In this document: positions 27,391-49,505 of the stretch, one piece after another | How the letters are laid out: each line of letters begins with the position of its first letter | Numbering within the stretch: the first letter of the stretch is position 1 | Assembly: GCA_029884335.1 (NCBI GenBank) | Contig: JAOUIA010000021.1 | Span: 1 to 55,795, forward strand | Direction of reading: 5' to 3' | From: Betaproteobacteria bacterium | Lineage (GTDB): Bacteria; Pseudomonadota; Gammaproteobacteria; Burkholderiales; Casimicrobiaceae | DNA: 55,795 nucleotides | Program-made: the position numbers and the translations under genes | The notes under the pieces: generated by a model | Databases searched by the model: none | The model's input: the letters and a program-made list of their open reading frames with translations, nothing else | Told to the model about the DNA's origin: nothing

Positions 27391-27667
27391 TCGATGCAAG
27401 AGGCGTTCGCGAGCGCGGCGGATGCCGCGACGCCGATGCTGCGCCTCTCGCATCGAGTCGGGGATCGCGCGAGCGCCCTCGGGGCGGCCCGTCGGGCGTT
27501 CGCCGCCAACGGCACGAACCAACGCACGCCGCGCGCCCGTTTTCACTCCAAGTGCCGTTTTGCATCATGCCGCCGGCGCAGCGAGCCGCTCGTTCGTTGA
27601 AGCATTTCCCCGGGTCGCGGCTGGAAGCGAACTGGCCGGATTGGTCAACGAACGACCGACTCACTAC
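27391..27667 (-). repeat. Interspersed repeat, copy C (full length)
   Basis: Minus-strand copy of a repeat family shared with 31651-31826, 36697-36933 and 49448-49505. It keeps hairpin A (27469-27478 with 27494-27503, one G-T pair) and hairpin B (27391-27405 with 27442-27456, one mismatch). Like the copy at 36697 it also has a 5' segment beginning GTAGTGAGT and containing CAATCCGGCCAGTTCGC. It occupies most of the 438-nt gap between the divergent rsxB and acyltransferase genes. The other 116 nt (27668-27783) have no clear promoter; a frame open upstream of the acyltransferase start lacks a good start codon. Confidence 0.85.
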
Positions 27668-27783
27668 GCTAGACTGCCGGCAGCCGCGGCCTCGCCCGCG
27701 GCACCCGCGGCCGCCACCTGTCCCCGTCCCTGCCCCCGCTCGCGGACCTCGAAGCCCACGTCCTCGAGCGTGGCGAGGGGGGC

Positions 27784-28350
27784 GTGCTGTCGCGCCTGGC
27801 CATCCGCCTGCTGCGGCTGTTCGGCTGGCGCGTCGTGCTCTGGCGGCCGATGCCTGCCAAGAGCGTCGTGGTGTTCTACCCGCACACGTCGAACTGGGAC
27901 TTCGCGATCGGGCTGCTGGCGAAGTGGGGCACGGGCATCTTCTTCCGCTTCGTGGGCAAGCACACGCTGTTCGAGACGCCGTTCGGGCCGCTGTTCCGGC
28001 GCTGGGGCGGCATCCCGGTGAACCGCCGCGATCCCGCCGACTTCGTCGCGACGATGCGCCGCGAGTTCGACGCGCACGCCAGCTTCCACCTGGCCATCGC
28101 GCCGGAGGGCACGCGCAGCCGCACCGAGCACTGGAAGAGCGGCTTCTACCGCCTGGCGGTCGGCGAGGGCGTTCCCGTCGGCCTGGCGTTCATCGATCGC
28201 CCGCGCAGGCTTATCGGCGTCGGCGCGTGGATCGACCTCGAGGGCGACCCCGGCGTCGACCTCGAGCGGATCCGCGCGTTCTACGCCGACAAGGTCGGCT
28301 GGCGTCCCGAGCGCGCGGGCCCGATCCGCTTCCGCGATCAGCGCGGCTAG
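27784..28350 (+). CDS. 1-acylglycerol-3-phosphate acyltransferase-like protein
   Basis: 188-aa member of the PlsC-type acyltransferase family, which transfers acyl chains to lysophospholipids or other acceptors at the membrane. The catalytic block HTSNWDF fits the HX4D motif. The phosphate-binding motif is EGTRSRTEHWKSGFYRLA, and GLAFID follows near the C-terminal third. The start GTG 27784 follows a GAGGGGGG run at short spacing. The frame stays open for ~38 codons upstream with plausible residues, so the true start could be earlier at a rarer codon. Confidence 0.87.
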   Translation: MLSRLAIRLLRLFGWRVVLWRPMPAKSVVVFYPHTSNWDFAIGLLAKWGTGIFFRFVGKHTLFETPFGPLFRRWGGIPVNRRDPADFVATMRREFDAHASFHLAIAPEGTRSRTEHWKSGFYRLAVGEGVPVGLAFIDRPRRLIGVGAWIDLEGDPGVDLERIRAFYADKVGWRPERAGPIRFRDQRG

Positions 28351-28427
28351 CGCAGTAGGTCGGCGATTCGTCGCAGCTGGTCGGCGGCGTCCGTGCGGCG
28401 TGTCCGACAGCGTGCCGACGCGCTGAG

Positions 28428-29444
28428 CTATCGTCCCTTGTAGTCGGCGGGGACGCGGAACAGGTCGGCGGGCGGCTCCTCGCGCTTGACGTTGACCAGC
28501 CGGTAGATCGTCTCGCCCGATCGCGGGTCGACGGACTTCAAGTACACGACGACGTGGAGGTCGGGCGAGAACCAGCGCTCGGAGGTCACGACGATCGGCT
28601 TCTCGTTGCCGATCTGGCCGGCGGGAATAGTGTGCGTGGTCAGCGTGCCGTCGGCGGAGACGCCGCCGAAGTCGCGCTTGCCGAGTTCCTTCGTCTCGCC
28701 CTTGCCGCGCGGCATCGGCGGCACCGCGAGCATGGGCGGCGGCGCGAGCGGCGCGCCGTCGCCGCGCGCGATGCGCACGACCTCGACGCGAACCTCCTTG
28801 TCGTTGTCGCCGCCGCGGCGGACGATCACGTGCCCGGGGCCCACCTCGACGTGCGCGCCGGAGCCGTGCGCCGCCGGCGGCGCGGGCGGCGCGGGCGGCG
28901 CGGCGGCGCCCGGTGGAACGGGCGGGACCGGAGGCACGGGCACGCGCGGCAGTCGCAGCGATGTCTTGCGCTCGGTGTCGAGGACGAAGCTGCGGTCGGC
29001 GACGGGATCGAACACGTACACCTTCGTGCCGCCCGGCCCCTTCTTCTCCTGGCGCGTGCGACCCTGCGTGTCGCGCGCGAGCAGCGTGCGTGTCTCGCGC
29101 ACGATGCGGTTGCCGTCGGCGAGGACCTGCACGCTCTCGGTGACCGCCTCGGCCGTGTACGGCGCGTTCTTGACGATCTCCCGCGAGCTGCCCATCTCCC
29201 CGGCGACGAACGCGAGCGCGGCTGCGTCGCCCTCGATGCGCAGGTCGTGCGAGAGCTGCGCGACGAACTCGTGCGCGCGCTCCCGCATCTCGCGGGCGAG
29301 TTCCCGCGCGTCGGACGGGAGGTCCTTCGCTTCCCAGCGGAACTCGTGGCGCTGTGCGCGCTGCGCGGTGTCGGACACCGGGGTGGCGGCGTGGGCGCCC
29401 GCGACGGCGAGGGCGGCGGCGAGGGGCAGCAGGCGGATGCGCAT
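28428..29444 (-). CDS. Secreted protein of an ECF sigma operon, unknown function
   Basis: 338-aa exported protein with signal MRIRLLPLAAALAVAGAHA. Two conserved-looking regions flank a linker. The first has YTAEAVTESVQVLADGNRI and VYVFDPVADRSFVLDTERKT. The second has GTLTTHTIPAGQIGNEKPI, VTSERWFSPDL, DPRSGETIYRLVNV and PADLFRVPADY. The linker is Pro/Val/Ala-rich (VPVPPVPPVPPG). I recall similar proteins beside ECF sigma genes, but no activity is known. It is the third gene of the operon, so it may be the sensed or regulated envelope component. Confidence 0.82.
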   Translation of the reverse strand: MRIRLLPLAAALAVAGAHAATPVSDTAQRAQRHEFRWEAKDLPSDARELAREMRERAHEFVAQLSHDLRIEGDAAALAFVAGEMGSSREIVKNAPYTAEAVTESVQVLADGNRIVRETRTLLARDTQGRTRQEKKGPGGTKVYVFDPVADRSFVLDTERKTSLRLPRVPVPPVPPVPPGAAAPPAPPAPPAAHGSGAHVEVGPGHVIVRRGGDNDKEVRVEVVRIARGDGAPLAPPPMLAVPPMPRGKGETKELGKRDFGGVSADGTLTTHTIPAGQIGNEKPIVVTSERWFSPDLHVVVYLKSVDPRSGETIYRLVNVKREEPPADLFRVPADYKGR

Positions 29445-29463
29445 GGCGGGCTCCGAAGGCGGT

Positions 29464-29925
29464 TCAGTTGACGAAACGGAAGGCGAGCACGGCGCCGTCG
29501 GGACGCACGAGCAGCTCGGCTTCGACGCTCTGGTCGGCGCGGGCCGGGTCCACGGGCAGGCCCATCTGCGCGAGCGCGACGCGTGGCAGGCGCGTGGCCA
29601 CGACGACGGCGTCCGCCGAGCGCCCGATCTCCTCGTCCGAGGCGAGCGGCAGGAAGGCGCGCGACTGCGCGGCATCGGGATCCGGCGTCGGCGCGAGCGC
29701 GGACGGCGGGACCTGGCGCACGATCGCGGAGATCGCGAGGATGGAGGCGGCGAGCGCCACCGGCCACAGGAGCCAGCGGTCGAACATCCTGCCGCCGTCC
29801 GCAGGGGCGCGGCGTCGCGCGGCGCGCCCGATGGCCTGCGCGACGCCGCGATCGACGCGATCGGGCGGCGCGGCGGAGGCGAGCGCGTGCGACAGTTCGC
29901 GCAGCGAGTCGTCGAGGGACTTCAT
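29464..29925 (-). CDS. Putative single-span membrane anti-sigma factor
   Basis: 153-aa protein with a cytoplasmic N-terminus (MKSLDDSLRELSHALASAAP) of ~48 residues, one membrane helix (WLLWPVALAASILAISAIV) and a ~80-residue periplasmic part. This layout and the ATGA overlap with the ECF sigma gene suggest an anti-sigma factor that holds the sigma protein at the membrane. The zinc motif HXXXCXXC of classical anti-sigma domains is absent. The assignment rests on position and topology. Confidence 0.72.
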   Translation of the reverse strand: MKSLDDSLRELSHALASAAPPDRVDRGVAQAIGRAARRRAPADGGRMFDRWLLWPVALAASILAISAIVRQVPPSALAPTPDPDAAQSRAFLPLASDEEIGRSADAVVVATRLPRVALAQMGLPVDPARADQSVEAELLVRPDGAVLAFRFVN

Positions 29926-30548
29926 GGCTTTCTCCCGGACCCGGCGGCGATCGCCGACGGCTTGCCGTCGTCGAGTGCGAGCCATCGGGCGAGCAGCGCG
30001 CGCGCGCGGCTCAGGCGCGAGCGCACGGTGTTGAGTTCGCAGCCGCAGATCGCGGCGGCCTCGGCGTACGAGCGCTCGGCGAGCTCGACGAGCACCAGCA
30101 CGTCGCGGTAGTGCGGCGGCAGCGCGGCTATCGCCCGCCGCAGGCTGGCGAGGTCCTGCCGCTCGCCGACGAGCACGTCGGGCGTGGTCTCGACGACGTG
30201 CTCCGGGACCGACGGCATGCCGTCGTCGCCTTCGTCGAACGCCACCTCGCGCACGCCGGAGCGGCGGCGGACGAAGTTGCGCGCGATGCCGAGAAGCCAG
30301 GGGCGCAGCGCCCCGGCCGCCGGGTCGAAGTCGCCGGAGCGCGTCAGCAGGTGCACGAACACGTCCTGCGTGACGTCGGCCGCCGTGGCCGGCGAGCCGG
30401 ACCAGAGCAGCGCGAAGCGGTAGACGCCGCCCCGGTGGCGCCGGTAGAGCGGCTCGAGCGCGCGCGCCTCGCCGCACGCGAGGCGCGCCATCAGCGCGGC
30501 GTCCGCGGCCGCGGAACCGTCGGCGAGTTCGGAGGGATGCGCGGGCAT
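29922..30548 (-). CDS. ECF-type RNA polymerase sigma factor
   Basis: 208-aa alternative sigma factor. Region 2 (about residues 22-90) includes EPLYRRHRGGVYRFALLW and ADVTQDVFVHLL. Region 4 (about 130-185) includes LPPHYRDVLVLVELAERSYA and ELNTVRSRLSRARALL, a recognisable helix-turn-helix. Regions 1 and 3 are missing, as in the ECF group. It heads an operon with a membrane anti-sigma-like gene and a secreted protein, so it probably answers an envelope signal. ATG 30548 is used; a GTG lies two codons upstream. Confidence 0.92.
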   Translation of the reverse strand: MPAHPSELADGSAAADAALMARLACGEARALEPLYRRHRGGVYRFALLWSGSPATAADVTQDVFVHLLTRSGDFDPAAGALRPWLLGIARNFVRRRSGVREVAFDEGDDGMPSVPEHVVETTPDVLVGERQDLASLRRAIAALPPHYRDVLVLVELAERSYAEAAAICGCELNTVRSRLSRARALLARWLALDDGKPSAIAAGSGRKP

Positions 30549-30680
30549 GTTCACGGGTGGAATGGCGCCGGGCGGCGAACGCGGCGACCCCTGGCTGCCG
30601 TATATTCAGCGAAGCGGCACGAAAAGTTCCAGCCGGGCTGCGACGCCGGCGATTGCGGCCCGGCGGCGGGCGAGAGGACA

Positions 30681-31652
30681 ATGGCGGCAATGCCGCACGC
30701 GGACCACTTCCACGCGCACGACGACGGCCACGAGCAGCCGCACCCGAAGCCGCCGGCAAGCACGACGCTCGCTGCGCTGAAGGCCGGGCTGGCGCTGACC
30801 GCCGGCTTCGCGGTCGTCGAGGCGGTCGGCGGCTGGTGGGCAGGATCGCTCGCGCTGATCTCGGACGCCGGCCACATGGCCACGGACGCCGCGTCGTTCG
30901 TGGTCGCGCTGATCGCGCAGTTCGTGGCGCGCCGGCCGCCGTCGGCGCAGGCGAGCTTCGGCTACGCGCGCGCCGAGGTGCTGGCGGCGTTCGTCAACGC
31001 GCTGGTCATGCTCGCGCTGGTCGTGTGGATCACCGTCGAGGCGGTGTCGCGGCTGCTGCAGCCGATTCCCGTGCAGGGGCCGGTGGTGATGGCGGTGGCG
31101 ATCATCGGCCTCGGCATCAACCTGTTCGTCGCGTGGATGCTCTCCCGCGCGCGCGGCAGCCTCAACGCGCGCGGCGCGCTGCTGCACGTGTTCGGCGACA
31201 TCCTGGGTTCGGTCGCGGCGATCGCGGCGGGCGCGGTGATCGCGTTCACCGGCTGGACGCCGATCGACCCGATCCTCTCCGTCTTCGTCGCGCTGCTGAT
31301 CCTGCGCTCGACGATCGCGCTGCTGCGCGAGTCGGCCGGCGTGCTGCTCGAGCGCGTGCCCGATCACCTCTCCTACGAGAAGGTCGGCCGCGCGCTCGCC
31401 GCGCTTCCCGGCGTGACCGGCGTGCACGACCTGCACATCTGGACGATGTCGGCCGACCGCCCCGCGCTCTCCGCGCACGTGACGCTCGCCGACGGCGCGC
31501 AGTGGCCCGCCGTGCTGGCCGCTGCGCAGCGCATGCTCGCCAGCGAGTTCGGCATCGACCACGTCACGCTGCAGCCCACGTGGGCCACGGCGGGTGGCAA
31601 CGGGAGGGTGGTGCCGATAGTCGAGAAGCGGGGCCAGGGACCAGCAGCGTGA
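30681..31652 (+). CDS. Cation diffusion facilitator (CDF) metal transporter
   Basis: 323-aa CzcD/ZitB-like exporter of Zn2+ or similar ions in exchange for protons. The N-terminus is His-rich (MPHADHFHAHDDGHEQPHP). Six membrane helices follow, with paired metal-site motifs SDAGHMATDAASF in helix 2 and HVFGDILGSVAAI in helix 5. A cytoplasmic C-terminal domain (LPGVTGVHDLHIWTMSADRPALSAHV) completes the fold. ATG 30681 follows AGAGGA at short spacing; ATG 30690 is an alternative. The TGA stop overlaps the first bases of an interspersed repeat. Confidence 0.93.
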   Translation: MAAMPHADHFHAHDDGHEQPHPKPPASTTLAALKAGLALTAGFAVVEAVGGWWAGSLALISDAGHMATDAASFVVALIAQFVARRPPSAQASFGYARAEVLAAFVNALVMLALVVWITVEAVSRLLQPIPVQGPVVMAVAIIGLGINLFVAWMLSRARGSLNARGALLHVFGDILGSVAAIAAGAVIAFTGWTPIDPILSVFVALLILRSTIALLRESAGVLLERVPDHLSYEKVGRALAALPGVTGVHDLHIWTMSADRPALSAHVTLADGAQWPAVLAAAQRMLASEFGIDHVTLQPTWATAGGNGRVVPIVEKRGQGPAA

Positions 31653-31826
31653 TGCAAGACGACAACTGGGACACCAACGGATGCACGGCGCGCGTTGCTT
31701 CGTGCCGTTGCCGGCGAGCGCCCGACGGGCCGCCCCTAGGGCGCTCGCGTGATCCCCGGCTCGATGCAAAAGGCGCTACGTCGACCTCACGGCATCCACC
31801 GCGCTCCCGAACGCCTTTTGCATCGA
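31651..31826 (+). repeat. Interspersed repeat, copy A
   Basis: 176-bp plus-strand copy. Hairpin A is GCGAGCGCCC (31714-31723) with GGGCGCTCGC (31739-31748). Hairpin B is TCGATGCAAAAGGCG (31761-31775) with CGCCTTTTGCATCGA (31812-31826), perfect over 15 bp. It lacks the 5' segment of copies B and C. It fills the whole gap between the convergent CDF transporter and corA genes: its first bases overlap the transporter stop and its last base is two nt from the corA stop. Confidence 0.88.
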
Positions 31827-31827
31827 T

Positions 31828-32802
31828 CTAGATCCACCCCGCCTTGCGGAACCGGAAGTACAAGTAGGCGTCCACGCCCACCATCAGCGCCATCGCCCAG
31901 GGGTAGCCGAAGCGCCAGGCGAGCTCGGGCATGTGCGCGAAGTTCATGCCGTAGATGCCCGCGATCAGCGTCGGCACGGTGATCAGCGCGCCCCAGGCCG
32001 CCAGCTGCTTGGTCACCTCGCCCTCGGAGAGGCTGATCAGCGTCAGGCTCACCTGGATGCCGGTCTGCAGCATCTCGCGCAGCGCGTTGATGCCGGCGGT
32101 CAGCCGGGCGAGGTGGTCGTAGACGTCGCGGAAGTAGTCCTGCGCGCCCGCGGCGATCGCCGGCACGCGGCCGCCGAACAGGCGCGTCACGGCATCCATC
32201 AGCGGCCCGACGGCGTGGGAAAGCACGGTGAGCCGGTACTTGAGGTCGTAGAAGCTCTCGATGTCGGCGCGCGTCGGCGTGGCGCGGAAAATGCGCTCCT
32301 CGAGCTTCTCGAGCTCCTCCTCGAGGTCGTCGAGCAGCGGGAAGTAGCGGTCGACCACCGCGTCCATCAGCGCGTAGAGCACGAAGCCCGCGCCGAGCGC
32401 CAGGTGCTCGGGCTCGCGCTCGGCGCGCGCGCGGACGGCCGCCAGGCCCACGTCCGAGCCGCGGCGCACCGAGAGCACGAAGTTGCGGCCGGCGAACAGC
32501 GCGACCTCGCCGGTCGCGAAGTCGGCGGGGTTCTCCGGGTGCCTGGCCAGCGTGTGCACGACGACGAAGAGCGTGTCGCCGTATTCCTCGAGCTTCGGCC
32601 GCTGGTGGCCCTTCTGCGCGTCCTCGACGGCGAGCTCGTGCAGGCCGAACTCCTCGGCCATCAGCTGCATCTCGTCGTGCGTCGGCTCGAAAAGCGCGAC
32701 CCAGACGAAGCAGTCCGGCCGGCTCACGTACTCGGAGATGTCCTCGACGGGGATGTCGCCGAGCTTGCGGCCGTCCTGGTAGGCGGCACAGTTGATCAGC
32801 AT
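31828..32802 (-). CDS. corA: Magnesium/cobalt transport protein CorA
   Basis: 324-aa pentameric divalent-cation channel. A large cytoplasmic domain (about 1-260) is followed by two C-terminal membrane helices. The signature GMN is in AGIYGMNFAHMPEL between the helices, and the C-terminus is basic (FRKAGWI). The LTAGINALREMLQTGIQ and SLSEGEVTKQLAAW helices form the stalk. The start MLINCAAYQDG gives the usual length. It is divergent from htpG with a 123-nt gap that holds the htpG heat-shock promoter. Confidence 0.95.
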   Translation of the reverse strand: MLINCAAYQDGRKLGDIPVEDISEYVSRPDCFVWVALFEPTHDEMQLMAEEFGLHELAVEDAQKGHQRPKLEEYGDTLFVVVHTLARHPENPADFATGEVALFAGRNFVLSVRRGSDVGLAAVRARAEREPEHLALGAGFVLYALMDAVVDRYFPLLDDLEEELEKLEERIFRATPTRADIESFYDLKYRLTVLSHAVGPLMDAVTRLFGGRVPAIAAGAQDYFRDVYDHLARLTAGINALREMLQTGIQVSLTLISLSEGEVTKQLAAWGALITVPTLIAGIYGMNFAHMPELAWRFGYPWAMALMVGVDAYLYFRFRKAGWI

Positions 32803-32857
32803 GGGGGCGGGCCGGAGGCGTGCTGGTGCGATCATATCGCCCGCGGCCGCGGCGGGG

Positions 32858-32886
32858 CTTGAAAGGCGCCCCGCCCGCCCCCATCG
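32858..32886 (+). promoter_or_regulatory. Sigma-32 (heat-shock) promoter of htpG
   Basis: CTTGAAA at 32858-32864, a 14-nt spacer, and CCCCATCG at 32879-32886. The -35 is an exact match to the sigma-32 consensus and the -10 matches CCCCAT. It lies 40 nt before the htpG ATG, and HtpG is a known heat-shock chaperone. The prediction is from sequence alone. Confidence 0.85.
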
Positions 32887-32925
32887 AAGGACGGTTTTGC
32901 AACACCTCACCCCCCGAAACGAGCG

Positions 32926-34844
<1,919 letters not shown>

Positions 34845-35498: not shown

Positions 35499-36695
35499 AT
35501 GATCCGCTCGCTGCTCGACACCGACCTGTACAAGTTCACGATGATGCAGGTCGTGCTGCACCACTTCCCGGGCGCGCAGGTCGAGTACCGCTTCAAGTGC
35601 CGCAATGCGGGCATCGACCTGACGCCCTGCATCGGCGCGATCCGCGAGGGCATCCGCGGCCTGTGCTCGCTGCGCTTCACGGACGAGGAGCTCGATTACC
35701 TGCGCAGCCTGCGGTTCATGAAGAGCGACTTCGTCGACCTGCTCGGCCTGTTCCAGCTCGACGAGCGCTTCATCCACGTCGCGCCGCGCGCTGACGCCCC
35801 GGGCGAGATCGACATCGCGATCAAGGGGCCGTGGCTGCACACGATCCTCTTCGAGGTGCCGGTGCTGGCGATCGTCTCGGAGGTCTACTACCGCGCCAAC
35901 GTGCCGCGGCCCGACTTCGCCGAAGGGCGCCGGCGGCTCGCCGCGAAGATCGCGCTGGCCAACGAGGTCGGCGACCCGGACTTCCACATCGCCGACTACG
36001 GCACGCGGCGCCGCTTCTCGCGCGAGTGGCACGCCGAGGTCGCAAGGACGCTCAAGCGCGACATGCCGGTGCACTTCGTCGGCACCAGCAACGTGATGCT
36101 GGCGCGGGACGAGGGGCTGACGCCGCTCGGCACGATGGCGCACGAGTACCTGCAGGCTTGCCAGGCGGTGGGGCCGCGGCTGGTCGACTCGCAGCGGTTC
36201 GCTTTCGACAAGTGGGCCGCCGAGTACCGCGGCGACCTCGGCATCGCGCTCTCCGACGTCTGCGGCATGGACGCGTTCCTGCGCGACTTCGACATGTTCT
36301 TCTGCAAGCTGTTCGACGGCGTCCGCCACGACTCGGGCGAGCCGTTCGACTGGGGCGAGAAGCTGATCGCGCACTACCAGCGCATGCGCATCGACCCGCG
36401 GACCAAGACGTTCGTGTTCTCCGACCAGCTCAACGTGCCGCTGGCGATCCGGCTGTTCAACCACTTCCGGGGCCGTGCGCGCACCGCGTTCGGCATCGGC
36501 ACCAACCTGACCAACGACCTCGGCTACGAGGCGCTGCAGATCGTGATCAAGATGACGCGCTGCAACGGCCAGCCGGTGGCGAAGATCAGCGACGCGCCGA
36601 GCAAGATGATGGACTACGACCCCTCGTACGTCGCCTACCTGCGGCAGGTCTTCCAGGTGCCCGAGCCGGCCGAGGCGGCGAAGCCGACGGGCTAG
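35499..36695 (+). CDS. pncB: Nicotinate phosphoribosyltransferase
   Basis: 398-aa enzyme of NAD salvage that joins nicotinate with PRPP to give nicotinate mononucleotide. Typical segments are [20 protein letters not shown] at the N-terminus, [29 protein letters not shown] in the middle, [15 protein letters not shown] with the phosphorylatable His, and [12 protein letters not shown] near the C-terminus. ATG 35499 gives the usual short N-terminus. The stop codon is followed two bases later by repeat copy B. Confidence 0.97.
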
Positions 36696-36696
36696 G

Positions 36697-36933
36697 GTAG
36701 TGAGTGGTCAGCTCGTCGAGCAATCCGGCCAGTTCGCAGCCGGGTATTGTCGCAGCACGATGAGAAGCAGCATTTTGAACACGACGCAGGCACGGCGCGC
36801 GTTGCTGCGTGCCGTTGCCGGCGAGCGCCCGATGGGCCGCCCCAAGGGCGCTCGCGTGATCCATGGCTCGATGCAAAAGGCGCAACAACGACGTCTCGGC
36901 ATCCACAGAGCGCCCGAACGCCTTTTGCATCGA
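36697..36933 (+). repeat. Interspersed repeat, copy B (full length)
   Basis: 237-bp plus-strand copy. The 5' segment starts GTAGTGAGTGGTC and contains CAATCCGGCCAGTTCGC, shared with copy C. Hairpin A is 36831-36840 with 36846-36855 (GCGAGCGCCC/GGGCGCTCGC, five-base loop by exact pairing). Hairpin B is 36868-36882 with 36919-36933, perfect and identical to copy A. It fills the 242-nt gap between the convergent pncB and M48-like genes almost completely, leaving one base on the left and four on the right. Confidence 0.88.
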
Positions 36934-36937
36934 TCCG

Positions 36938-37717
36938 CTAGCGAATCGACCTCCCGCCTCCCGGCGCGGCCGGCCTGGGTGGCCGCGGCATCGCCTCCGC
37001 GTTCGCGCGGGTCTCCTCGTACAACGGCATCGCGCCGTCGGCGGCGGAGTCGAGCGCAGCAAGGCGAGCGTCCGTGACGGGGAAGCGCCGCGCGAGCGGC
37101 GCGTCGGCGGGGAGCCGGCGCCACGCGCCCGCGGCCGACTTCGGCGAGTAGACCCCGCGGGCGAGCAGCTCCACCGACGCGCGATCCGCGGCGGCGATTT
37201 CCGCTTCCGCGTAGCGGCGCTTCAGCGCCTCGCCGGTCGCGTTGGCGACGGCGAGCGCGCGGCGGTTGGGATCGGCGGCGAGCGCATCCCCGGGCGCCAC
37301 GATGGCCTCCAGCCGCGCGCGGTCGTGGCCGAGCAGCGCGTGAGCGAGCACGTGGGCGAGCAGCGCGCCCACTTCCTCGTCGGACAGCCCCGCGGCCAGG
37401 AGGCCGGTGTTCACGAGCACGCGCCCGCCCGGATAGACGACGGCGTCGGCGACGGCATCCGTGGCGACGTTGACGGTCCAGGAGTGCGCGCGCGCAGCCG
37501 GTTCGAGCGCCGCGGCCCCCGCGATGATCCGGTTGGCGATGCCGCGTGCCCGGGCCGTGACTCCGGACTCCGCGTTCAGGCGCCGTTCGGCGGCGACGGG
37601 CTGGAGCACGCGTCGGTAGGCGATCTCGCTGCCCTGGTCGATCGCGGCAGGGTCGAGCGCAGCGGCGGCGGCAAGCGACGCGGCGGCAAGGGCAAGGGCT
37701 GTGGAGAGGGCGCGCAC
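36938..37717 (-). CDS. M48-like exported metallopeptidase homologue with an altered active site
   Basis: 259-aa exported protein (signal VRALSTALALAAASLAAAAA). The M48-type core includes VYPGGRVLVNTGLLAAGLSDEEVGALLAHV. The zinc motif HEXXH reads H-V-L-A-H here, followed by ALLGHDRARLEAIV. The catalytic Glu is therefore Val (GTG codon, one base from GAG). The third-ligand region AEIAAADRASVELLARGVYSP is preserved. The two His may still bind metal, but ordinary peptidase activity should be lost. The start is a GTG at 37717. Confidence 0.85.
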   Translation of the reverse strand: MRALSTALALAAASLAAAAALDPAAIDQGSEIAYRRVLQPVAAERRLNAESGVTARARGIANRIIAGAAALEPAARAHSWTVNVATDAVADAVVYPGGRVLVNTGLLAAGLSDEEVGALLAHVLAHALLGHDRARLEAIVAPGDALAADPNRRALAVANATGEALKRRYAEAEIAAADRASVELLARGVYSPKSAAGAWRRLPADAPLARRFPVTDARLAALDSAADGAMPLYEETRANAEAMPRPPRPAAPGGGRSIR

Positions 37718-42790: not shown

Positions 42791-42897
42791 GGTGCGCGTG
42801 GCCGCTTGAAAGCGCGCGGACCGGCCGCATTTGGCAGGGCTGCGCGGCGGGATGTTAGCACCCGTTGTCCCGGGCGCCGGTGGGGTCTTCCGTCGAA

Positions 42898-42925
42898 TTG
42901 AAACCCCCGCGGGTTCTGCTAGTCT
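42898..42925 (+). promoter_or_regulatory. Predicted sigma-70 promoter of the Bax inhibitor-1 family gene
   Basis: TTGAAA (42898-42903), a 16-nt spacer, and TAGTCT (42920-42925). It is followed at 42937-42953 by a strong hairpin (CGGCCCC/GGGGCCG) that ends just before the GGAGG ribosome-binding site at 42960-42964. The hairpin could affect translation or mRNA stability. Confidence 0.5.
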
Positions 42926-42968
42926 AACGGTCGCTTCGGCCCCGTCGGGGCCGTTCTACGGAGGATAG

Positions 42969-43691
42969 ATGGATCCCAAGCTCCAGCCTGTGTCGGTTTC
43001 GGGTGAGCGCCTGCCGCTGCCCCAGGCGGGCGGTACGCTGGCCCCGGAAAGCAGCCGCGTCCTGCGCAACACCTACTGGCTGCTCGCCCTGACGATGCTG
43101 CCGACCATCGGCGGCGCGCTGCTCGGCACCCAGCTCAACCTCGCACGCGTGTTCGTGGCCTATCCGATCATCGCCCCGCTGGCGCTGTTCGGCCTGATGA
43201 TCGGCTCGCTGTTCGTCGTGACCGCGCTGCGCAACAGCGCGTGGGGCGTGGCGGCGCTGTTCGGCTTCACGTTCATCGCCGGGGTCGCGCTGACGCCGAT
43301 CCTCACCTACGCGGCGGGGATGCGCAACGGCGGCCAGCTGGTCGCGCTCGCGGGCGGCATGACGGCGGTGATCTTCTTCGCGCTCGCCGGCATCGCCACG
43401 GTGACGAAGAAGGACTTCTCGTTCATGGGCAAGTTCCTCTTCGTCGGGCTGATCCTGCTCGTCGTCGCGTCGCTGGCCAACCTGTTCTTCCAGGTGCCGG
43501 CGGTGTCGCTGACGATCTCGGCGATCGCGGTGCTGCTGTTCTCGGCGTACATCCTGTTCGACGTGTCGCGCATCGTGAACGGCGGTGAGACGAACTACGT
43601 GATGGCGACGATGGGGCTGTACCTCAGCATCTACAACCTCTTCAGCAGCCTGCTGCACCTGCTGCTCGCGTTCACGGGCGAGCGAGACTGA
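42969..43691 (+). CDS. Bax inhibitor-1/YccA family membrane protein
   Basis: 240-aa inner-membrane protein with seven hydrophobic helices. The N-terminus is cytoplasmic (~30 residues), followed by VLRNTYWLLALTMLPTIGGALL. The C-terminal FSAYILFDVSRIVNGGETNYVMATMGLYLSIYNLFSSLL carries the family signature with the Asp residues of the putative pH-sensing site. YccA-type members interact with the FtsH protease; whether this one does is not known. A GGAGG site precedes the ATG and a strong terminator follows. Confidence 0.94.
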   Translation: MDPKLQPVSVSGERLPLPQAGGTLAPESSRVLRNTYWLLALTMLPTIGGALLGTQLNLARVFVAYPIIAPLALFGLMIGSLFVVTALRNSAWGVAALFGFTFIAGVALTPILTYAAGMRNGGQLVALAGGMTAVIFFALAGIATVTKKDFSFMGKFLFVGLILLVVASLANLFFQVPAVSLTISAIAVLLFSAYILFDVSRIVNGGETNYVMATMGLYLSIYNLFSSLLHLLLAFTGERD

Positions 43692-43712
43692 CGGCGCGCT
43701 TCGCCGGACGAG

Positions 43713-43740
43713 AAGGCGGCCCCGCGGGGCCGCCTTTTTT
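43713..43740. terminator. Bidirectional intrinsic terminator
   Basis: AAGGCGGCCCC (43713-43723) pairs with GGGGCCGCCTT (43726-43736) across a minimal GC loop, followed by six T on the plus strand. It sits between the convergent yccA-like and rlmD genes. The plus-strand T-run makes it strongest for the yccA-like gene; the last T is also part of the rlmD stop codon. Confidence 0.88.
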
Positions 43741-45083
43741 CACGCCTGCGCGAACAGCGCGATCGACTCGACGTGCGCCGTATGCGGGAACATGTTGACC
43801 ACGCCCACGGCCTCGAGCGTGTAGCCGCGCTCGTGCACCAGCACGGCGGCGTCGCGCGCCAGCGTGGCCGGGTTGCACGAGACGTAGACGATGCGCGACA
43901 GCGCCTGCTCGTCGTCGCGCTGCGGCAGGGCCTTGACCAGTTCCACCGCGCCCTCGCGTGGCGGGTCGATCAGCGCGGCGTGCAGCGGGAGGAGAGGCGC
44001 GAGCGAATCGTGCGTGACGGCGAAGAGATCGGCCACCGCAAAGGTGGTTCGTTCGGTCAGGCCATTCGCCGCCGCGTTCTCGCGCGCCCGGCGCACCAGC
44101 GCCTCGGAGCCTTCCACGCCGGTCACCGCCGCGCCGCGCCGGGCGATCGGCAGCGTGAAGTTGCCCAGGCCGCAGAAGAAGTCGCCGATCCGCTCGCCGG
44201 GCCCGGGAGCCAGCAGCGCGAGCGCGCGCCGCACGAGCACGCGATTGACTTCGTGGTTGACCTGCGTGAACTCGGTCGGCCCGAACGGCACGACGACGCC
44301 GGACTCGGGCAGCGCGTAGGCGAGACGCGACTGCGGCGGATGGAACGGCGCTGCGGTCGCCGGCCCGGCGGTCTGCAGCCACACGTCCACGCCGTGCCGG
44401 TCGGCGAACGCGCGCAGATGCTCGCCGTCGGCGGCCGACAGCGGCTCGAGGATGCGGAACACCAGCGCGTGGACCGGCTCGCCGGGGCTGCCGCCGTCGA
44501 TCGCCCGCTCGCCGACGGCCAACTCGATCTGCGGCACGCGGTCGCGGATCGACAGCGCACCGACGAGCTCGCGCAGCTGCGGCAGCAGGTCCGAAATCTT
44601 GCGCGGCAGGACGCGGCACTCGCGCATGTCGGCGACGAAGCTGGAGCGGCGCTCGTGGAAGCCGACGAGCACGCCGCCCTTCTTCGGCACGTGGCGCACG
44701 GACAGCCGCGCACGGTAGCGGTAGCCCCACGCGGGGCCGTGCACCGGCGGCAGCAGCCGGCCCGGCTTCAGGCGTCCGATGCGCGCGAGCGCATCCTCCA
44801 GCACGCGCTGCTTCGCAGCGACCTGCAGGGCGGGCTCGGCGTGCTGCAGCGAGCAGCCTCCGCAGACGCCGAAGTGCGGGCAGGCCGGCTCGGCGCGCGA
44901 CGGGCTCGCGCGCAGCACCTGCCGCGTGCGCGCGATCTCGTAGCTCGGCTTGCGCTTCAGCGTCTCGATCGCGACGGTTTCGCCGGGGAGCGCGCCCTCG
45001 ACGAACACGGCCTTGCCTTCGACGCGGGCAACGCCGCGGCCCTCGTTGTCGAGCGATTCGATGGTGACGAGGGGTTCCGCCAT
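43740..45083 (-). CDS. rlmD: 23S rRNA (uracil-1939-C5)-methyltransferase
   Basis: 447-aa SAM-dependent RNA methyltransferase of the RumA/TrmA family. An N-terminal TRAM domain ([21 protein letters not shown]) is followed by iron-sulfur cysteines in [15 protein letters not shown]. The SAM-binding motif is [16 protein letters not shown], and the catalytic Cys is in [14 protein letters not shown]. The length and cluster favour RlmD over TrmA. A related RlmC assignment is less likely. Confidence 0.93.
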
Positions 45084-45188
45084 GGCCGCGCAGCCGCCTT
45101 CCGCGTGGCAGAGGGCGGTTCATTGTAACGCCGCCGGCGCATCGGACCACGAGGGTAGAATCGCCGCTCCTTCCTGCCCGCCGCCGCG

Positions 45189-45872
45189 ATGCGCGTCCTC
45201 GCGATCGAATCGTCCACCGACATGCTCTCGGTCGCCGCCGGCGACGCGACGGGCGTCGCCGAGCGCGCCGAGCGCGCCGGTCAGGCGCACGCCGAGCGCG
45301 TGCTGCCGCTGGTCGACGAGGCGCTCGCCGCGCGCGGCTGGGAACTCGCGGACGTCGACGGCATCGCGTTCGGCGCCGGTCCCGGCGCGTTCACCGGCGT
45401 GCGCATCGCCTGCGGGATCGCGCAGGGGCTGGCGCTGGGCGCCGGCAAGCCAGTCGTTCCCGTCGGCACGCTCGCGGCACTCGCCGAGGACGCGCGCCGC
45501 GCGCACGGCGCCACGCGCGTCGTCGCCTGCCTCGACGCGCGCATGCACGAGGTCTACGTCGCGGCCTACGAGCGTCACGGCGACGATTGGCGCGAAGCTG
45601 CCTCGCCGGCCGTGCTCGAGCCCGCGGCGATCGCGCTGCCTGCCGGCCCGTGGTTCGGCGCCGGCAACGGCCTCGCCGTCGCACCGTCGCTGGCGGCGGT
45701 GCTCGAAGCGGCCGACGCCGCGCTCGTCCCGACCGCGCGCTCCGTGCTCGATCTGGCGCGGCGCGCGCTGGCGCGCGGGCAGGGCGTGGCGCCGGAGCAC
45801 GCGCTGCCGCTGTACGTGCGCCACCGCGTGGCGCTGACCGCCGCCGAGCGCGCGGCCGGAGCGAGGCTGTGA
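45189..45872 (+). CDS. tsaB: tRNA threonylcarbamoyladenosine biosynthesis protein TsaB
   Basis: 227-aa ASKHA-fold protein that partners TsaD and TsaE in making t6A37 of tRNAs. It begins MRVLAIESSTDMLSVAAGD and contains FGAGPGAFTGVRIACGIAQGLALG, both typical of TsaB. The start gives the canonical N-terminus. The TGA overlaps the rimI ATG by one base (TGATG). tsaB, rimI and the uracil-DNA glycosylase gene form one plus-strand operon with overlapping ends. Confidence 0.95.
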   Translation: MRVLAIESSTDMLSVAAGDATGVAERAERAGQAHAERVLPLVDEALAARGWELADVDGIAFGAGPGAFTGVRIACGIAQGLALGAGKPVVPVGTLAALAEDARRAHGATRVVACLDARMHEVYVAAYERHGDDWREAASPAVLEPAAIALPAGPWFGAGNGLAVAPSLAAVLEAADAALVPTARSVLDLARRALARGQGVAPEHALPLYVRHRVALTAAERAAGARL

Positions 45873-46378
45873 TGGCGAGCCTGCCGGACCTCGCAGCGCC
45901 GCGGCCGCGCGTCACCTGGCGGCCGATGGAGGCCGCGGACCTCGCCTACGTCGCCGCGCTCGAGGCGCAGATCCACGCGGCCCCGTGGACGCTCGGCAAC
46001 TTCCGCGACGCGCTCAACGCGGGCTACAGCGCGCAGGTGGGCGAGCGCGAAGGGCGCATCGTCGCGTTCGGCGTGCTGATGCTCGGCCCCGGCGAGGCGC
46101 AGCTCCTCAACCTGTCGGTGGTTCCCGACGCGCGCCGGCAGTCGCTGGGCGCGGCACTGCTCGCGCGCTTCGTCGAAGACGCGCGGCGCTGCGGCGCCGA
46201 GCAGATGTTCCTCGAGGTGCGCGCCGGCAACGCGGCGGCGATCGCGCTCTACGAGGCCGCGGGCTTCGCGCGCATCGCGCGTCGCGACGCGTACTACCCG
46301 GCCACCGCCACGCTGCCGGCCGAGGACGCGCTGGTGATGCGCCTCGCCCTGCGGCCGGCTGCGGCCACGCCCCCCTGA
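45872..46378 (+). CDS. rimI: Ribosomal-protein-alanine N-acetyltransferase
   Basis: 168-aa GNAT acetyltransferase that modifies the N-terminus of ribosomal protein S18 and possibly other proteins. The acetyl-CoA motif is [19 protein letters not shown], and [25 protein letters not shown] is the typical C-terminal block. The ~20-residue N-terminal extension before [11 protein letters not shown] is unremarkable. Its stop codon overlaps the next ATG (TGATG), continuing the coupled tsaB-rimI arrangement. Confidence 0.93.
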
Positions 46379-47139
46379 TGGCGACGCGCGACGAGATACT
46401 GCGCGAGCTGGGCCTCGCCCCGACGTGGCGGCTGCGTTCGCGTGCGCATGCGGGGGAGGCGCTGCCTGCCGAGGTGCCGGAAGCGGACGTCGTGGTGCCT
46501 GCGGGGCGCGTCCAGCCGCTGCGTCCGGCCGGTGAGGCCGGCGAGCGCCTCGCGCGCATCGCCGCGCTGGAATGGTCCGCGCTCGCCGCGGACATCGACG
46601 CTTGCAACGCCTGCGGGCTGTGCCGCACGCGCAATCGCTCGGTGCCCGGGGTGGGCGATCCGCGCGCGCGCTGGCTGCTCGTGGGCGAGGCTCCCGGCGC
46701 CGAGGAGGACGCGCGCGGCGAGCCGTTCGTGGGGCAGGCCGGCAAGCTGCTCGACAACATGCTCGCGGCGCTGGGCGCAAGCCGGCGCGAGGGCGTGTAC
46801 ATCGCCAACGTCCTCAAGTGCCGGCCGCCGGGCAACCGCACGCCGGAACCCGCGGAAGCCGAGGCGTGCCGGCCCTATCTCGAGCGCCAGATCGCGCTGA
46901 TCGGCCCGCAGCTGATCGTCGCGCTCGGCAGGAGCGCGGCCAGCCTGCTGCTCGGCACCGACGCCACCATCGCGAGCCTGCGCGGGCGCGTGCACCGCTG
47001 GCGGTCGACGCCGCTCGTGGTCACGTATCATCCGGCCTATCTGTTGCGCAATCTGCCCGACAAGGCAAAGGCCTGGGAGGATCTGCTGCTCGCGCGCCAG
47101 GTGGCGGCGCCGGATACCCGCACTTCGTCGGCGCCTTGA
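46378..47139 (+). CDS. Uracil-DNA glycosylase, iron-sulfur (family 4-like)
   Basis: 253-aa DNA repair enzyme that removes uracil from DNA. The fold shows [23 protein letters not shown] and KLLDNML in motif 1, and [11 protein letters not shown] in motif 2. Iron-sulfur ligands are in [12 protein letters not shown] and a later KCRPPGNR. An N-terminal ~75-residue extension precedes the domain, as often in betaproteobacterial members fused or coupled to rimI. It is the last gene of the tsaB operon. Confidence 0.93.
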
Positions 47140-47182
47140 GGTCGATTTCGGCAACGATTGCGCGGTTCGTCGCAGAGCCCGC

Positions 47183-47211
47183 TTGAAACCGCGGGGGCCG
47201 GCCGTCATAGT
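47183..47211 (+). promoter_or_regulatory. Predicted promoter of the lemA-TPM operon
   Basis: TTGAAA (47183-47188), a 17-nt spacer, and CATAGT (47206-47211), about 50 nt before the lemA ATG. The preceding C makes CTTGAAA, but no CCCCAT-type -10 follows at sigma-32 distance, so a sigma-70 promoter is more likely. Confidence 0.5.
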
Positions 47212-47262
47212 GCAGGCCGCGGGCCGCCGCATGGCAGTCCACTTTCCACCCGGAGGGGTCCA

Positions 47263-47874
47263 ATGTTCCGCAAGCTCGCCGCCGTCTTCCTCGCCGCCGC
47301 CACGCTCCTGCTGGGCGGCTGCGGCTACAACACGCTGCAGTCGCAGGACGAAGGCATCAAGGCCTCCTGGTCGGAGGTGCTGAACCAGTACCAGCGCCGC
47401 GCCGACCTCGTGCCCAACCTCGTCAACACGGTGAAGGGCTACGCGGCGCAGGAGGAGAAGGTGCTGACCGAGGTGACGCGTGCCCGCGCGAGCGTGGCAG
47501 GCATCAAGGCCACGCCGGAGCTCATCAACGATCCCGCGGCGTTCCAGAAGTTCCAGGCGGCGCAGTCCGAGCTGTCCGGCGCGCTGTCGCGGCTGATGCT
47601 CGTCGTCGAGAACTACCCGAACCTCAAGTCGGATGCGCTGTTCCGCGACCTGCAGTCGCAGCTCGAGGGCACGGAGAACCGCATCACGGTCGCGCGCAAC
47701 CGCTACATCAAGACCGTGCAGGAGTACAACACGACGGTGCGCCAGTTCCCGACCAACCTGACGGCGATGATCTTCGGCCACAACGTGAAGCCGAACTTCG
47801 CGGTGGCCGACGAGGCGACGGTCTCGAAGCCGCCCACGGTCGACTTCGCCAAGCCGGCGCCGGCGCAGAAGTAA
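47263..47874 (+). CDS. LemA family lipoprotein
   Basis: 203-aa exported lipoprotein. The lipobox LLLGGC at the end of the signal peptide predicts lipid attachment at that Cys. The LemA domain follows: IKASWSEVLNQYQRRADLVPNLVNTVKGYA, and the helical ENRITVARNRYIKTVQEYNTTVRQFP. LemA proteins form long helical bundles; their role is not settled. A strong CGGAGGGG site precedes the ATG. It is followed by two TPM-domain genes, a common trio. Confidence 0.94.
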   Translation: MFRKLAAVFLAAATLLLGGCGYNTLQSQDEGIKASWSEVLNQYQRRADLVPNLVNTVKGYAAQEEKVLTEVTRARASVAGIKATPELINDPAAFQKFQAAQSELSGALSRLMLVVENYPNLKSDALFRDLQSQLEGTENRITVARNRYIKTVQEYNTTVRQFPTNLTAMIFGHNVKPNFAVADEATVSKPPTVDFAKPAPAQK

Positions 47875-47965
47875 TCCCCGCCGCCCGCCGGTCCGACGCC
47901 CGGGGCGCGCCACAGCGCCCGGGCGGCCGGCCCGCGCGCGCCGGACGGAGCGCTCCCACACCGCC

Positions 47966-48907
47966 ATGACGCTTGCCGGGGCTTCGACGTTGGCGTGGCT
48001 GCAGCGCGCGATCCTCGCGTTCGCGCTGTGGCCGCTCGTCGCGCTCGCCCAGTCGCCGGGCTGGGAAGCCGGCACGAACGGCCTCGCACCGATCCCGCAG
48101 CTTTCCGCCCGCGTCACCGACGTCACCGGCACGCTGAACCCGGCCGAGCGCGCGGCACTCGAGGCGAAGCTCGCGGGATTCGAACAGCGCACCGGCGGGC
48201 AGTTCGCGGTGCTGCTGGTGCCTTCAACGCAGCCCGAGCCGATCGAGGCGTACTCGATCCGCGTCGCGGACGCGTGGAAGATCGGCCGCAAGGGCCGCGA
48301 CAACGGCGTGCTGCTGGTCGTCGCGAAGGGCGACCGCAAGCTGCGGCTCGAGGTCGGCTACGGCTACGAGGGCGTGCTCACCGACGCGATGAGCAAGCGG
48401 ATCATCGCCGAGACGATCACGCCGTTCTTCCGGCAGGGCCAGTTCGCGGCGGGCATCAACGCCGGCGTGGACCGGGCGATCGGGGTCATCGGCCAGGATC
48501 CGGCGGCGGTGGCGCCACCCGCGCGCGGCCCGGAGCAACGCTCGGCACCCGGCGTCGACATGGGCACGCTGCTCGTCATGCTGCTGGTCGTGCTGCCGAT
48601 CCTCGGGGGCGTGTTGCGCCGCATCTTCGGCAAGGTCGGCGGCGCGACCGTGGGCGCGGGCCTGGTCGGCACGGGGGTTGCGGTCATTGCCGGTTCGATC
48701 CTGCTCGGCGTTCTCGGCGCCGGCGTCGCATGGGTGGTGCTCTTGTTCATGGGCGCGGGCAACGGCATCGTCGCCAACGGCCGCCGCGGCGGCTTGCCCG
48801 GCCCGTGGATCGGTGGCGGCGGCTGGGGCGGCGGTGGAGGAAGCGGCGGCGGCTGGAGCGGCGGCGGCGGCGGCTTCGGCGGCGGCGGCGCCTCGGGCGA
48901 CTGGTGA
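47966..48907 (+). CDS. TPM-domain (YgcG-like) membrane protein
   Basis: 313-aa protein with a signal sequence (to ALAQS), a periplasmic TPM domain (about 40-175) with LSARVTDVTGTLNPAERAALEAKL and DNGVLLVVAKGDRKLRLEVGYG, then membrane helices (LLVMLLVVLPILGGVL and GTGVAVIAGSILLGVLGAGVAWVVLLFM). It ends in a long Gly-rich tail finishing GGGGASGDW, as is usual for the YgcG family. TPM domains were first seen in photosystem-repair and phosphatase proteins; the bacterial role is unknown. Its stop overlaps a GTG of the next frame. Confidence 0.92.
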   Translation: MTLAGASTLAWLQRAILAFALWPLVALAQSPGWEAGTNGLAPIPQLSARVTDVTGTLNPAERAALEAKLAGFEQRTGGQFAVLLVPSTQPEPIEAYSIRVADAWKIGRKGRDNGVLLVVAKGDRKLRLEVGYGYEGVLTDAMSKRIIAETITPFFRQGQFAAGINAGVDRAIGVIGQDPAAVAPPARGPEQRSAPGVDMGTLLVMLLVVLPILGGVLRRIFGKVGGATVGAGLVGTGVAVIAGSILLGVLGAGVAWVVLLFMGAGNGIVANGRRGGLPGPWIGGGGWGGGGGSGGGWSGGGGGFGGGGASGDW

Positions 48908-48930
48908 CACTCCACGGACGAGCGACGGCG

Positions 48931-49443
48931 ATGCCCTGGCGAGCCCCCTACCGATTCTGGCGTCACGCGTTCTGCGACGAGGCGGACGTCCGCCGCGCGT
49001 TCCCGCCCGAGGGCATGGCGCGCATCGAGGCCGCGATCCGCGGCGGCGAGGCGACCCACAGCGGGCAGGTGTGCGTGGCGGTCGAGCACTCGCTGCCGCT
49101 GCACCGCGTCGTCCGTCGCCCCGCCGTGGCGCCGCGCACGCGCGCCCTCGAGGTGTTCGGCCAGCTGCACGTCTGGGACACCGAGCACAACAACGGCGTG
49201 CTGATCTACGTGCTGCTCGCGGACCGCGACGTGGAGATCGTGGCCGACCGCGGCATCGATCGCCGCGTGGGGCACGACGCGTGGGAGGCGATCTGCCGGC
49301 GCATGGAGGCGCACTTCCGCGAGGGCCGGCACGTCGCTGCGGTCGAGGCGGGCGTGCGCGAGGTCTCCGAGCTGCTGGCCCAGCACTTCCCCGGGGACGG
49401 GGCGGACCGCAACGAGCTCCCCGATCGACCGGTCGTCCTGTAG
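48931..49443 (+). CDS. Second TPM-domain protein (soluble)
   Basis: 170-aa protein with a TPM domain and no signal peptide or membrane helix. Characteristic segments are RIEAAIRGGEATHSGQVCVAVEHSL, VWDTEHNNGVLIYVLLADRDVEIVADRGIDRRV, and WEAICRRMEAHFREGRHVAAVEAGV. The start is uncertain: GTG 48904 overlaps the previous stop and would add nine residues. It completes the lemA-TPM-TPM operon and converges on lplT across two repeat elements. Confidence 0.87.
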   Translation: MPWRAPYRFWRHAFCDEADVRRAFPPEGMARIEAAIRGGEATHSGQVCVAVEHSLPLHRVVRRPAVAPRTRALEVFGQLHVWDTEHNNGVLIYVLLADRDVEIVADRGIDRRVGHDAWEAICRRMEAHFREGRHVAAVEAGVREVSELLAQHFPGDGADRNELPDRPVVL

Positions 49444-49447
49444 TCAT

Positions 49448-49505
49448 TCGATGCAAGAGGCGTTCGGGCGCGCAGTGGATGCCGCGACGTCGACGTTGCG
49501 CCTTT
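49448..49505 (-). repeat. Interspersed repeat, copy D (truncated)
   Basis: About 58 nt matching the 3' end of copies A-C in minus orientation. The arm TCGATGCAAGAGGCG (49448-49462) is intact and identical to that of copy C. The opposite arm stops after CGCCTTT (49499-49505), where a long palindrome begins. Hairpin A and the 5' part are missing. It starts five bases after the stop codon of the second TPM gene. Confidence 0.78.

What the first reader, a model, noticed from the sequence alone, without database searches (positions are those of the whole stretch)
27391..49505. Interspersed repeat family with two conserved hairpins (four copies in 22 kb)
Copies at 27391-27667 (minus), 31651-31826 (plus), 36697-36933 (plus) and 49448-49505 (minus, truncated) share one sequence of ~180 bp. 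Two copies also share a further 5' segment starting GTAGTGAGT. All long copies keep hairpin A (GCGAGCGCCC/GGGCGCTCGC) and hairpin B (TCGATGCAAAAGGCG/CGCCTTTTGCATCGA). No open frame in the repeat is conserved as protein across copies. The density suggests a genome-wide, possibly unnamed, non-autonomous element or structured RNA.
Basis: seen in the sequence. Interest (0 to 1): 0.72.

Follow-up and report, generated by a model that had tools for sequence, protein, structure and literature searches.

The report
CTAG-targeting mini-transposon carrying a conserved hairpin
The repeat is most likely a tiny, gene-less jumping DNA element that lands on the letters CTAG, often exactly at the ends of genes where it leaves the stop signal working, and it carries a hairpin whose loop recurs many times in some other Burkholderiales bacteria.

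Summary
The repeat is real: three complete copies and one fragment in the window, 59 model matches in the genome (about 55 distinct places). The unit is ~194 bp; the "GTAGTGAGT" segment belongs to a second, neighbouring CTAG element. Both ends are imperfect inverted repeats starting at CTAG. One clean empty site in a related species holds CTAG once, so a 4-bp CTAG duplication is likely. An IS5-family insertion sequence in another species of the genus has matching ends (left end identical at 18-22 of 23 bases to element left ends). Best reading: a MITE moved in trans by an IS5-type transposase, although none was found in the own genome. CTAG is 7-fold rare in the window and enriched at stop codons; in 17 of 30 copies examined a neighbour's stop codon is the end CTAG. 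Presence is patchy (6 of 22 genomes of the genus). Hairpins A and B covary. The hairpin-A loop GMCGGGCCGCCCCNAG has 851 matches in 399 genomes of the order against 38 for the reversed control; 26 genomes in seven families exceed every control value, with changing but complementary stems. No Rfam family matches. The mobile part is a new member of a known kind; the wider hairpin is the novel part, function untested.

The parts
27383..27576 (-). Copy 1, complete ~194-bp element; end sites decayed from CTAG (CCGG left, CTGG right)
27469..27503 (-). Copy 1 hairpin A (loop GAC-GGGCCGCCC-CGA)
27391..27456 (-). Copy 1 hairpin B; outer arm is the right terminal inverted repeat
31641..31831 (+). Copy 2, complete element; right end CTAG 31828-31831 is the stop codon of the corA gene on the minus strand
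31714..31748 (+). Copy 2 hairpin A
31761..31826 (+). Copy 2 hairpin B (arms 31761-31775 and 31812-31826)
36748..36941 (+). Copy 3, complete element; right end CTAG 36938-36941 is the stop codon of an M48-peptidase gene on the minus strand; left end diverged
36821..36855 (+). Copy 3 hairpin A
36868..36933 (+). Copy 3 hairpin B (arms 36868-36882 and 36919-36933)
49440..49505 (-). Copy 4, right-end fragment only, cut off at a foreign palindrome (49505-49593)
27573..27672 (-). Separate CTAG element of family 2 (GTAGTGAGT...), abutting copy 1 at a shared, decayed CTAG; not part of the repeat
36692..36747 (+). Left part of a family-2 element abutting copy 3; its CTAG (36692-36695) is the stop codon of a nicotinate phosphoribosyltransferase gene

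Best explanation
The repeat is a ~194-bp MITE. Seen in the sequence: both ends are imperfect ~23-bp inverted repeats starting at CTAG; an orthologous empty site in a related species has CTAG once where the filled site has CTAG-type sites at both ends; copies are scattered, patchy among related species, and often sit so that the end CTAG is a neighbour's TAG stop codon; an IS5-family IS in the same genus has matching ends. Inferred: an IS5-type DDE transposase recognises the ends in trans and inserts the element at CTAG, duplicating 4 bp. Because CTAG is rare in this genome and frequent at gene ends, and because the duplication keeps the TAG in frame, many insertions are silent; this would explain the accumulation at gene 3' ends. 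Inside, the element carries two hairpins whose arms change together. Hairpin A has a nearly fixed loop (G[A/C]C-GGGCCGCCC-C[N]A) shared with a dispersed hairpin family in several families of the order Burkholderiales. My inference for its work is that it acts like a REP stem-loop in the 3' untranslated or intra-operon part of messages (blocking 3'-5' decay or binding a protein through the loop); this step has no direct evidence.
For: Copies. Ends and unit. Empty site: the copy at G000:C16 (L006; TTAG on the left, CTAG on the right) versus G015:C1:657703-657900, one CTAG in GCTACTAGCGAGG. petC-sspA gap: element with CTAG at both ends in G000, one in opposite orientation in G001, none in the other 18 of 20 genomes seen, nine of which keep CACTAG without the element. 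Nesting at CTAG: elements abut at one shared CTAG-type site (copy 1, L029), and another CTAG-flanked element sits in the CTAG of a hairpin-A loop (L173). Partner: L214 802-2118 in G015, IS5 family by NF033581 (235.4 bits, cut-off 140); its left end is identical at 18, 22, 20 and 21 of 23 positions to the left ends of single intact copies picked from G000 (two types), G008 and G001 (chance of >=22 of 23 at one place ~4e-13, of >=18 ~1e-7). Target: 19 CTAG in the window against 140 expected, 8 of 19 at stop codons of coding-like frames; 17 of 30 copies examined give a neighbour its stop codon (13 right end, 4 left end). Covariation: 95.9% of 2259 cells paired, 13 of 28 pairs with double change, 118 double-change cells versus 42.4 shuffled (0 of 500 reach it), slid controls 36-47% paired; 40 compensatory branch changes; 51 both-sided branch changes versus null mean 19.2, max 31 of 200. 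Hairpin A beyond the genus.
Against: No DDE_Tnp_1 transposase in the own genome or G001; no close relative of the IS5 partner in the own genome or in G008, which holds the most copies (G008 has one weak 31% match); MAG assemblies often miss IS copies (recalled), but the partner is only seen in another species. The IS right end matches element ends less well (14-18 of 23), and patterns for hairpins A and B find neither in it. Only one of the 12 joined flanks tested (of 19 made) gave a clean single-CTAG empty site; L010 in G009, G010, G017, G018 and L003 in G019 gave spanning matches without CTAG at the joint, and the rest gave no clean spanning match. Copies are old (nearest-neighbour identity median 87.5% in 33 G000 copies, 91.0% in 38 G008 copies), so no recent transposition is seen. 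Three copies (L001, L006, L021) end at ATCTAG instead of TGCTAG, 3 bp short; many left CTAGs are decayed. Stop-codon calls rest on a codon-position heuristic. The rows of the covariation alignment were found with a structure-bearing model and picked by hand, which leans towards paired copies. The G.U versus A.C test is 51 to 33 (p=0.063), so selection on an RNA of the + strand is not shown.
Confidence: 0.77

Rival explanations
1. The repeat is primarily a structured RNA family (regulatory or 3'-end RNA) that happens to be repeated, and the ends are not transposon ends.
For: Strong covariation; the hairpin-A loop recurs in other families of the order on different complementary stems; position at gene 3' ends.
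Against: Precise CTAG-bounded unit, empty site, opposite-orientation insertion at one locus, patchy presence and the matching IS5 ends. Strand test inconclusive.
Confidence: 0.1
2. It is a REP/BIME-type repeat mobilised by a RAYT (Y1, IS200-like) transposase.
For: Hairpins, high copy number, intergenic location; one Y1 transposase match in each of G000, G008 and G001 and two in G015.
Against: No copy lies in the five Y1 loci (best 15.5 bits); the Y1 gene of G008 is flanked by its own GGGGTCAGAGTCGA repeats and that of G000 has CGAGTCTGACCCTACTTT beside it, the kind that truncates copy 4. The unit has inverted terminal repeats with CTAG at both ends.
Confidence: 0.06
3. The hairpin covariation is not selection but mutation: intrastrand template switching (quasi-palindrome correction, recalled) keeps the arms alike.
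For: Double changes are common and G.U intermediates are not clearly in excess over A.C (51 versus 33); hairpin B arms are long near-perfect palindromes.
Against: It does not explain why the loop and internal loop of hairpin A stay nearly fixed while stems turn over among genomes of seven families.
Confidence: 0.3
4. It is a bridge-RNA or other IS110-type element.
For: Two-hairpin structure beside insertion ends.
Against: No IS110 transposase domain (PF02371) in G000, G008 or G015; one in G001.
Confidence: 0.01

Closest known systems
MITEPsy1 of Pseudomonas syringae (PMC3189936; passages read)
   Same: Short non-coding element with inverted repeats, 4-bp duplication of CTAG or YTAA, ends nearly those of an IS5-family IS (ISPsy2), several copies.
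   Different: 100 bp, different ends, no covarying internal hairpins mentioned in the passages read; transposition was observed there, not here.
IS5-family insertion sequences (L214 element; ISAzs10-like relatives at ~50% by tblastn)
   Same: Matching terminal inverted repeat and CTAG flanks (L214).
   Different: 1.3 kb, codes for a transposase, lacks hairpins A and B.
REP/BIME elements with RAYT transposases (recalled)
   Same: Dispersed intergenic hairpins, also between genes of one operon.
   Different: RAYT REPs keep a GTAG-type tetranucleotide (recalled); here the loop is conserved and the stem is free, and no RAYT is linked.
Dispersed Burkholderiales hairpin with loop GMCGGGCCGCCCCNAG (no name found; described here)
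   Same: Hairpin A of the element is one of these hairpins.
   Different: Elsewhere it is mostly followed by a CCCCCT.GGGGGG hairpin, not by hairpin B and CTAG ends; three G179 places match the whole model and two of them have a long hairpin B of other sequence.

Membership tests
MITE | Terminal inverted repeats | tested here: met
   (imperfect, ~23 bp)
MITE | Target-site duplication | tested here: met
   CTAG-type sites at both ends; one clean single-CTAG empty site among 12 joined flanks tested; many left CTAGs decayed
MITE | Short, multicopy, scattered, polymorphic between relatives | tested here: met
MITE | No own transposase gene | tested here: inconclusive
   at ~194 bp too short for a transposase; reading frames of copies were not compared formally
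MITE | Ends shared with an autonomous IS | tested here: met
   L214 in G015, left end 18-22 of 23, right end 14-18; not found in the own genome
MITE | Transposition observed | not testable with these tools
   needs an assay
IS5 family (partner) | Transposase matches the IS5 model above cut-off | tested here: met
   NF033581 235.4 bits, cut-off 140
REP/RAYT | Linked RAYT gene flanked by the repeat | tested here: not met
IS110 bridge-RNA element | IS110 transposase in the genome | tested here: not met
   absent in G000, G008, G015
Known RNA family (Rfam 15) | Match at gathering score | tested here: not met
   only a tRNA in the window; 0 matches in 17 loci

The most novel reading that the evidence does not exclude
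Hairpin A is a structured element of several Burkholderiales families that Rfam 15 does not hold: a nearly fixed loop and internal loop (G[A/C]C-GGG-CCG-CCC-C[N]A) on a stem of any sequence, in up to 142 copies per genome, recognised as RNA or as extruded DNA by a specific factor; mobile elements such as this MITE have picked it up because it makes insertion at gene ends harmless or useful.
Probability: 0.4. Interest if true: 0.75.

Novelty: new variant of a known kind. Interest (0 to 1): 0.55.

Why it matters
It gives a clear case of a mini-transposon whose target (CTAG) is rare in the genome and enriched at stop codons, with a duplication that keeps the stop codon, so copies can pile up at gene ends at little cost. 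More important, it leads to a loop-conserved hairpin on free stems that is abundant in some Burkholderiales (exact loop read in Paraburkholderia and Acidovorax plasmids), was not in Rfam 15 or in the paper searches I made, and sits between genes, where REP elements are known (recalled) to affect mRNA stability; that is directly testable in culturable strains.

Tried and rejected
RAYT/REP origin: the five Y1 transposase loci carry no copy. IS110/bridge RNA: domain absent in three of four genomes. Phage, plasmid or viral origin: the hairpin-B pattern found nothing in viral contigs, blastn of copy 2 found nothing in plasmids or phages. Larger autonomous version among left ends without a full copy: the left-end pattern matched in three genomes; I read ten loci and five more; those without a full copy were internally deleted (L139, L145, L147, L152, L163), contig ends or end fragments (L141, L150, L157, L168, L169, L171), or looked like chance (L167, L170); none was a longer element. 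Hairpin A as a universal Burkholderiales motif: samples of 400 kb from G022 and 200 kb from G031 hold none, and 337 of 399 genomes have no match. Strand of action by G.U/A.C asymmetry: inconclusive. Coding-like stop codons within 40 nt 5' of the wider hairpin: 8 of 47 sites, no rule. Literature: ten searches ran; no title or abstract start listed dealt with this repeat or loop, and GGGCCGCCCCAAG occurs in no paper of that library, which lacks most subscription journals; only PMC3189936 was opened, and only passages of it were seen.
Full report
What is in the window. Aligned with other copies of the genome, the complete unit runs about 194 bp from CTAG to CTAG: left end CTAGCAGCATGATGCAAGACGAC, right end ..CGCCTTTTGCATCGATCTGCTAG. 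Copies 1-3 are complete (27383-27576 minus, 31641-31831 plus, 36748-36941 plus); copy 4 (49440-49505 minus) is a fragment. The 'further 5' segment' GTAGTGAGT... of copies 1 and 3 is a second CTAG-ended element (nine matches in the genome; L033 about 188 bp) lying next to them.

Number and spread. Blastn gave 41 matches (40 of 174 candidates scored); covariance model R1 gave 59 at E<=1e-3 (150 of 12659 candidates scored), about 55 distinct places. Of 41 genomes (own included) 6 have matches, all in the same genus: G000 59, G008 68, G001 6, G015 6, G003 1, G009 1; the other 16 genomes of the genus and the 19 outside have none under the stricter filters of that call. Model R2 over 300 genomes of the order found only the own genome and one place in another family (G179), with only 10 candidates per genome scored.

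It moves, and it uses CTAG. Twelve joined flanks (of 19 made) were searched in 22 genomes of the genus. The clearest case is the copy at G000:C16: G015 has GCTACTAGCGAGG, one CTAG, where G000 has TTAG-element-CTAG. Between petC-like and sspA-like genes (names recalled from the sequence, not from a database call), G000 has a copy with CTAG at both ends, G001 has one in the opposite orientation, and the other 18 of 20 genomes seen have none; nine of these keep CACTAG uninterrupted. For L010 four genomes, and for L003 one genome, show spanning matches with no CTAG at the joint; the remaining flanks gave no clean spanning match. Elements also nest at CTAG: copy 1 and L029 share one CTAG-type site with the family-2 element, and in L173 another CTAG-flanked element sits in the CTAG of the hairpin-A loop.

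The likely mover. Of 12 transposase loci looked at, one IS in G015 (L214 802-2118, about 1.3 kb) has the element's ends on both sides of a 364-aa transposase. Its left end is identical at 18-22 of 23 positions to left ends of four intact copies picked from G000, G008 and G001, 22 of 23 to L068. The transposase is IS5 family (NF033581, 235.4 bits; DUF772 and DDE_Tnp_1). The 50%-identical paralogue in G015 has other ends (CAGGCTGTTGAAA). Against: the own genome has no DDE_Tnp_1 match and no relative of it, G008 only a weak 31% match, and the IS right end matches less well (14-18 of 23).

Why gene ends. CTAG occurs 19 times in the window against 140 expected from base composition, while CATG and GTAC, of the same letters, occur 161 and 125 times; 8 of the 19 are stop codons of coding-like frames. 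In 30 copies of G000 examined, a neighbouring coding-like frame stops at the end CTAG in 17 (13 at the right end, one of them 3 bp inward, and 4 at the left end). In the window, corA (copy 2) and an M48 peptidase gene (copy 3) end this way. That is what insertion into CTAG with duplication predicts: the stop codon survives. It follows from where CTAG is and needs no preference for genes.

The hairpins. On 82 copies from six genomes, 95.9% of cells pair, 13 of 28 pairs show changes on both sides, with 118 such cells against 42.4 in shuffles (0 of 500 reach it) and 36-47% pairing in slid controls. On a tree from the unpaired columns there are 40 compensatory branch changes over 13 pairs, beside 83 that break a pair; both-sided changes number 51 against a mean of 19.2 and a maximum of 31 in 200 permutations. 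The rows were found with the structure-bearing model R1 and picked by hand, which favours paired copies. G.U against A.C on the + strand is 51 to 33 branch events, p=0.063: no clear RNA strand.

A wider hairpin. The match in G179 (L229) has other stems but the same loop, and no CTAG in its 3096 bases. The loop pattern GMCGGGCCGCCCCNAG has 851 matches in 62 of 399 genomes of the order; the reversed pattern has 38, by my addition of the table, in 31 genomes and at most 3 in any one. So the 36 genomes with one to three matches are within the control's range; 26 genomes, in seven families, exceed it (among them G179 142, G363 118, G344 83, G140 60, G316 50). Of 30 sites read in loci that the tool returned for 28 of the genomes, 16 have a stem of at least 4 bp and five have none. 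Of 49 sites from seven genomes, 32 have an unbroken stem (G.U allowed) of at least 5 bp against a mean of 3.9 and a maximum of 12 in 1000 shuffles; some are near-identical tandem copies. Of 89 evaluated sites, 62 have at least 6 of 8 Watson-Crick pairs against a mean of 5.5 and a maximum of 14 in 500 shuffles, with 41 different 6-base arms. In most sites read it is followed by a CCCCCT.GGGGGG hairpin, often in tandem. A BLAST of one such unit hits nine plasmid records (Burkholderia 3, Variovorax 2, Paraburkholderia, Acidovorax, Rhodoferax, Azoarcus). Of the four I read, the exact loop is in two (Paraburkholderia caribensis, Acidovorax temperans); Variovorax and Azoarcus have changed loops. In the three with a gene table the unit lies in a gap of 82-136 bp between co-directional genes; that table is incomplete by its description. 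Sampling 400 kb of G179 gave 18 sites with stems of at least 3 bp (a slightly looser pattern); three places match R2 over its whole length, two of them (L229/L360 and L369) with a long hairpin B of other sequence. G022 and G031 samples had none. No Rfam family matches at gathering score.

Reading. The mobile part is a new member of a known kind, close to MITEPsy1, which has the same 4-bp CTAG or YTAA duplication and IS5 link (PMC3189936, passages read). The hairpin cargo is what lifts it: a loop-conserved hairpin on free stems in several families of an order. My working mechanism for it is REP-like action in messages; template-switch mutation is the main rival for the covariation of stems, but does not explain the conserved loop. 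On checking, the spread of the loop was cut from 62 genomes to 26 above control and the named carriers were narrowed; I lowered the main confidence by 0.01 for the fuller account of empty sites and left the other odds.

Noticed in passing
window 27573-27672 and 36692-36747; L033, L034, L036, L038: Second CTAG-ended palindromic element (CTAGTGYAGTGAGTCGG..., about 188 bp in L033); a second MITE-like family at CTAG, in the window at the stop codon of a nicotinate phosphoribosyltransferase gene.
   Followed up: partly
L173 (G000:C107:1-1500): A third short element with inverted ends (GGAACCTCTGCGTAACC / GGTTACGCAGAGCTTCC) inserted with CTAG on both sides into the hairpin-A loop of a copy.
   Followed up: no
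window 49505-49593; L132, L133: Palindrome AAAGTAGGGTCAGACTCGACTTTCC that truncates copy 4; similar repeats lie beside the single Y1 transposase genes of G008 and G000.
   Followed up: partly
L005, L008 left flanks; G000 C45, C54, C68, C93, C117: A further repeat (TGTCCCGTACCGGAAGTTCCTTG...) next to the left end of two copies, with inverted pairs at several places.
   Followed up: no
L139, L145, L147, L152, L163 (G008): Internally deleted copies that keep both ends, the shortest about 50 bp (L152).
   Followed up: no
L360, L364, L374 (G179); G259, G408, G226 places: Tandem arrays of the wider hairpin with periods of about 60 to 90 bp.
   Followed up: no
window, all CTAG sites: CTAG is about 7-fold under-represented in this 72% GC stretch (19 against 140 expected).
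   Followed up: partly
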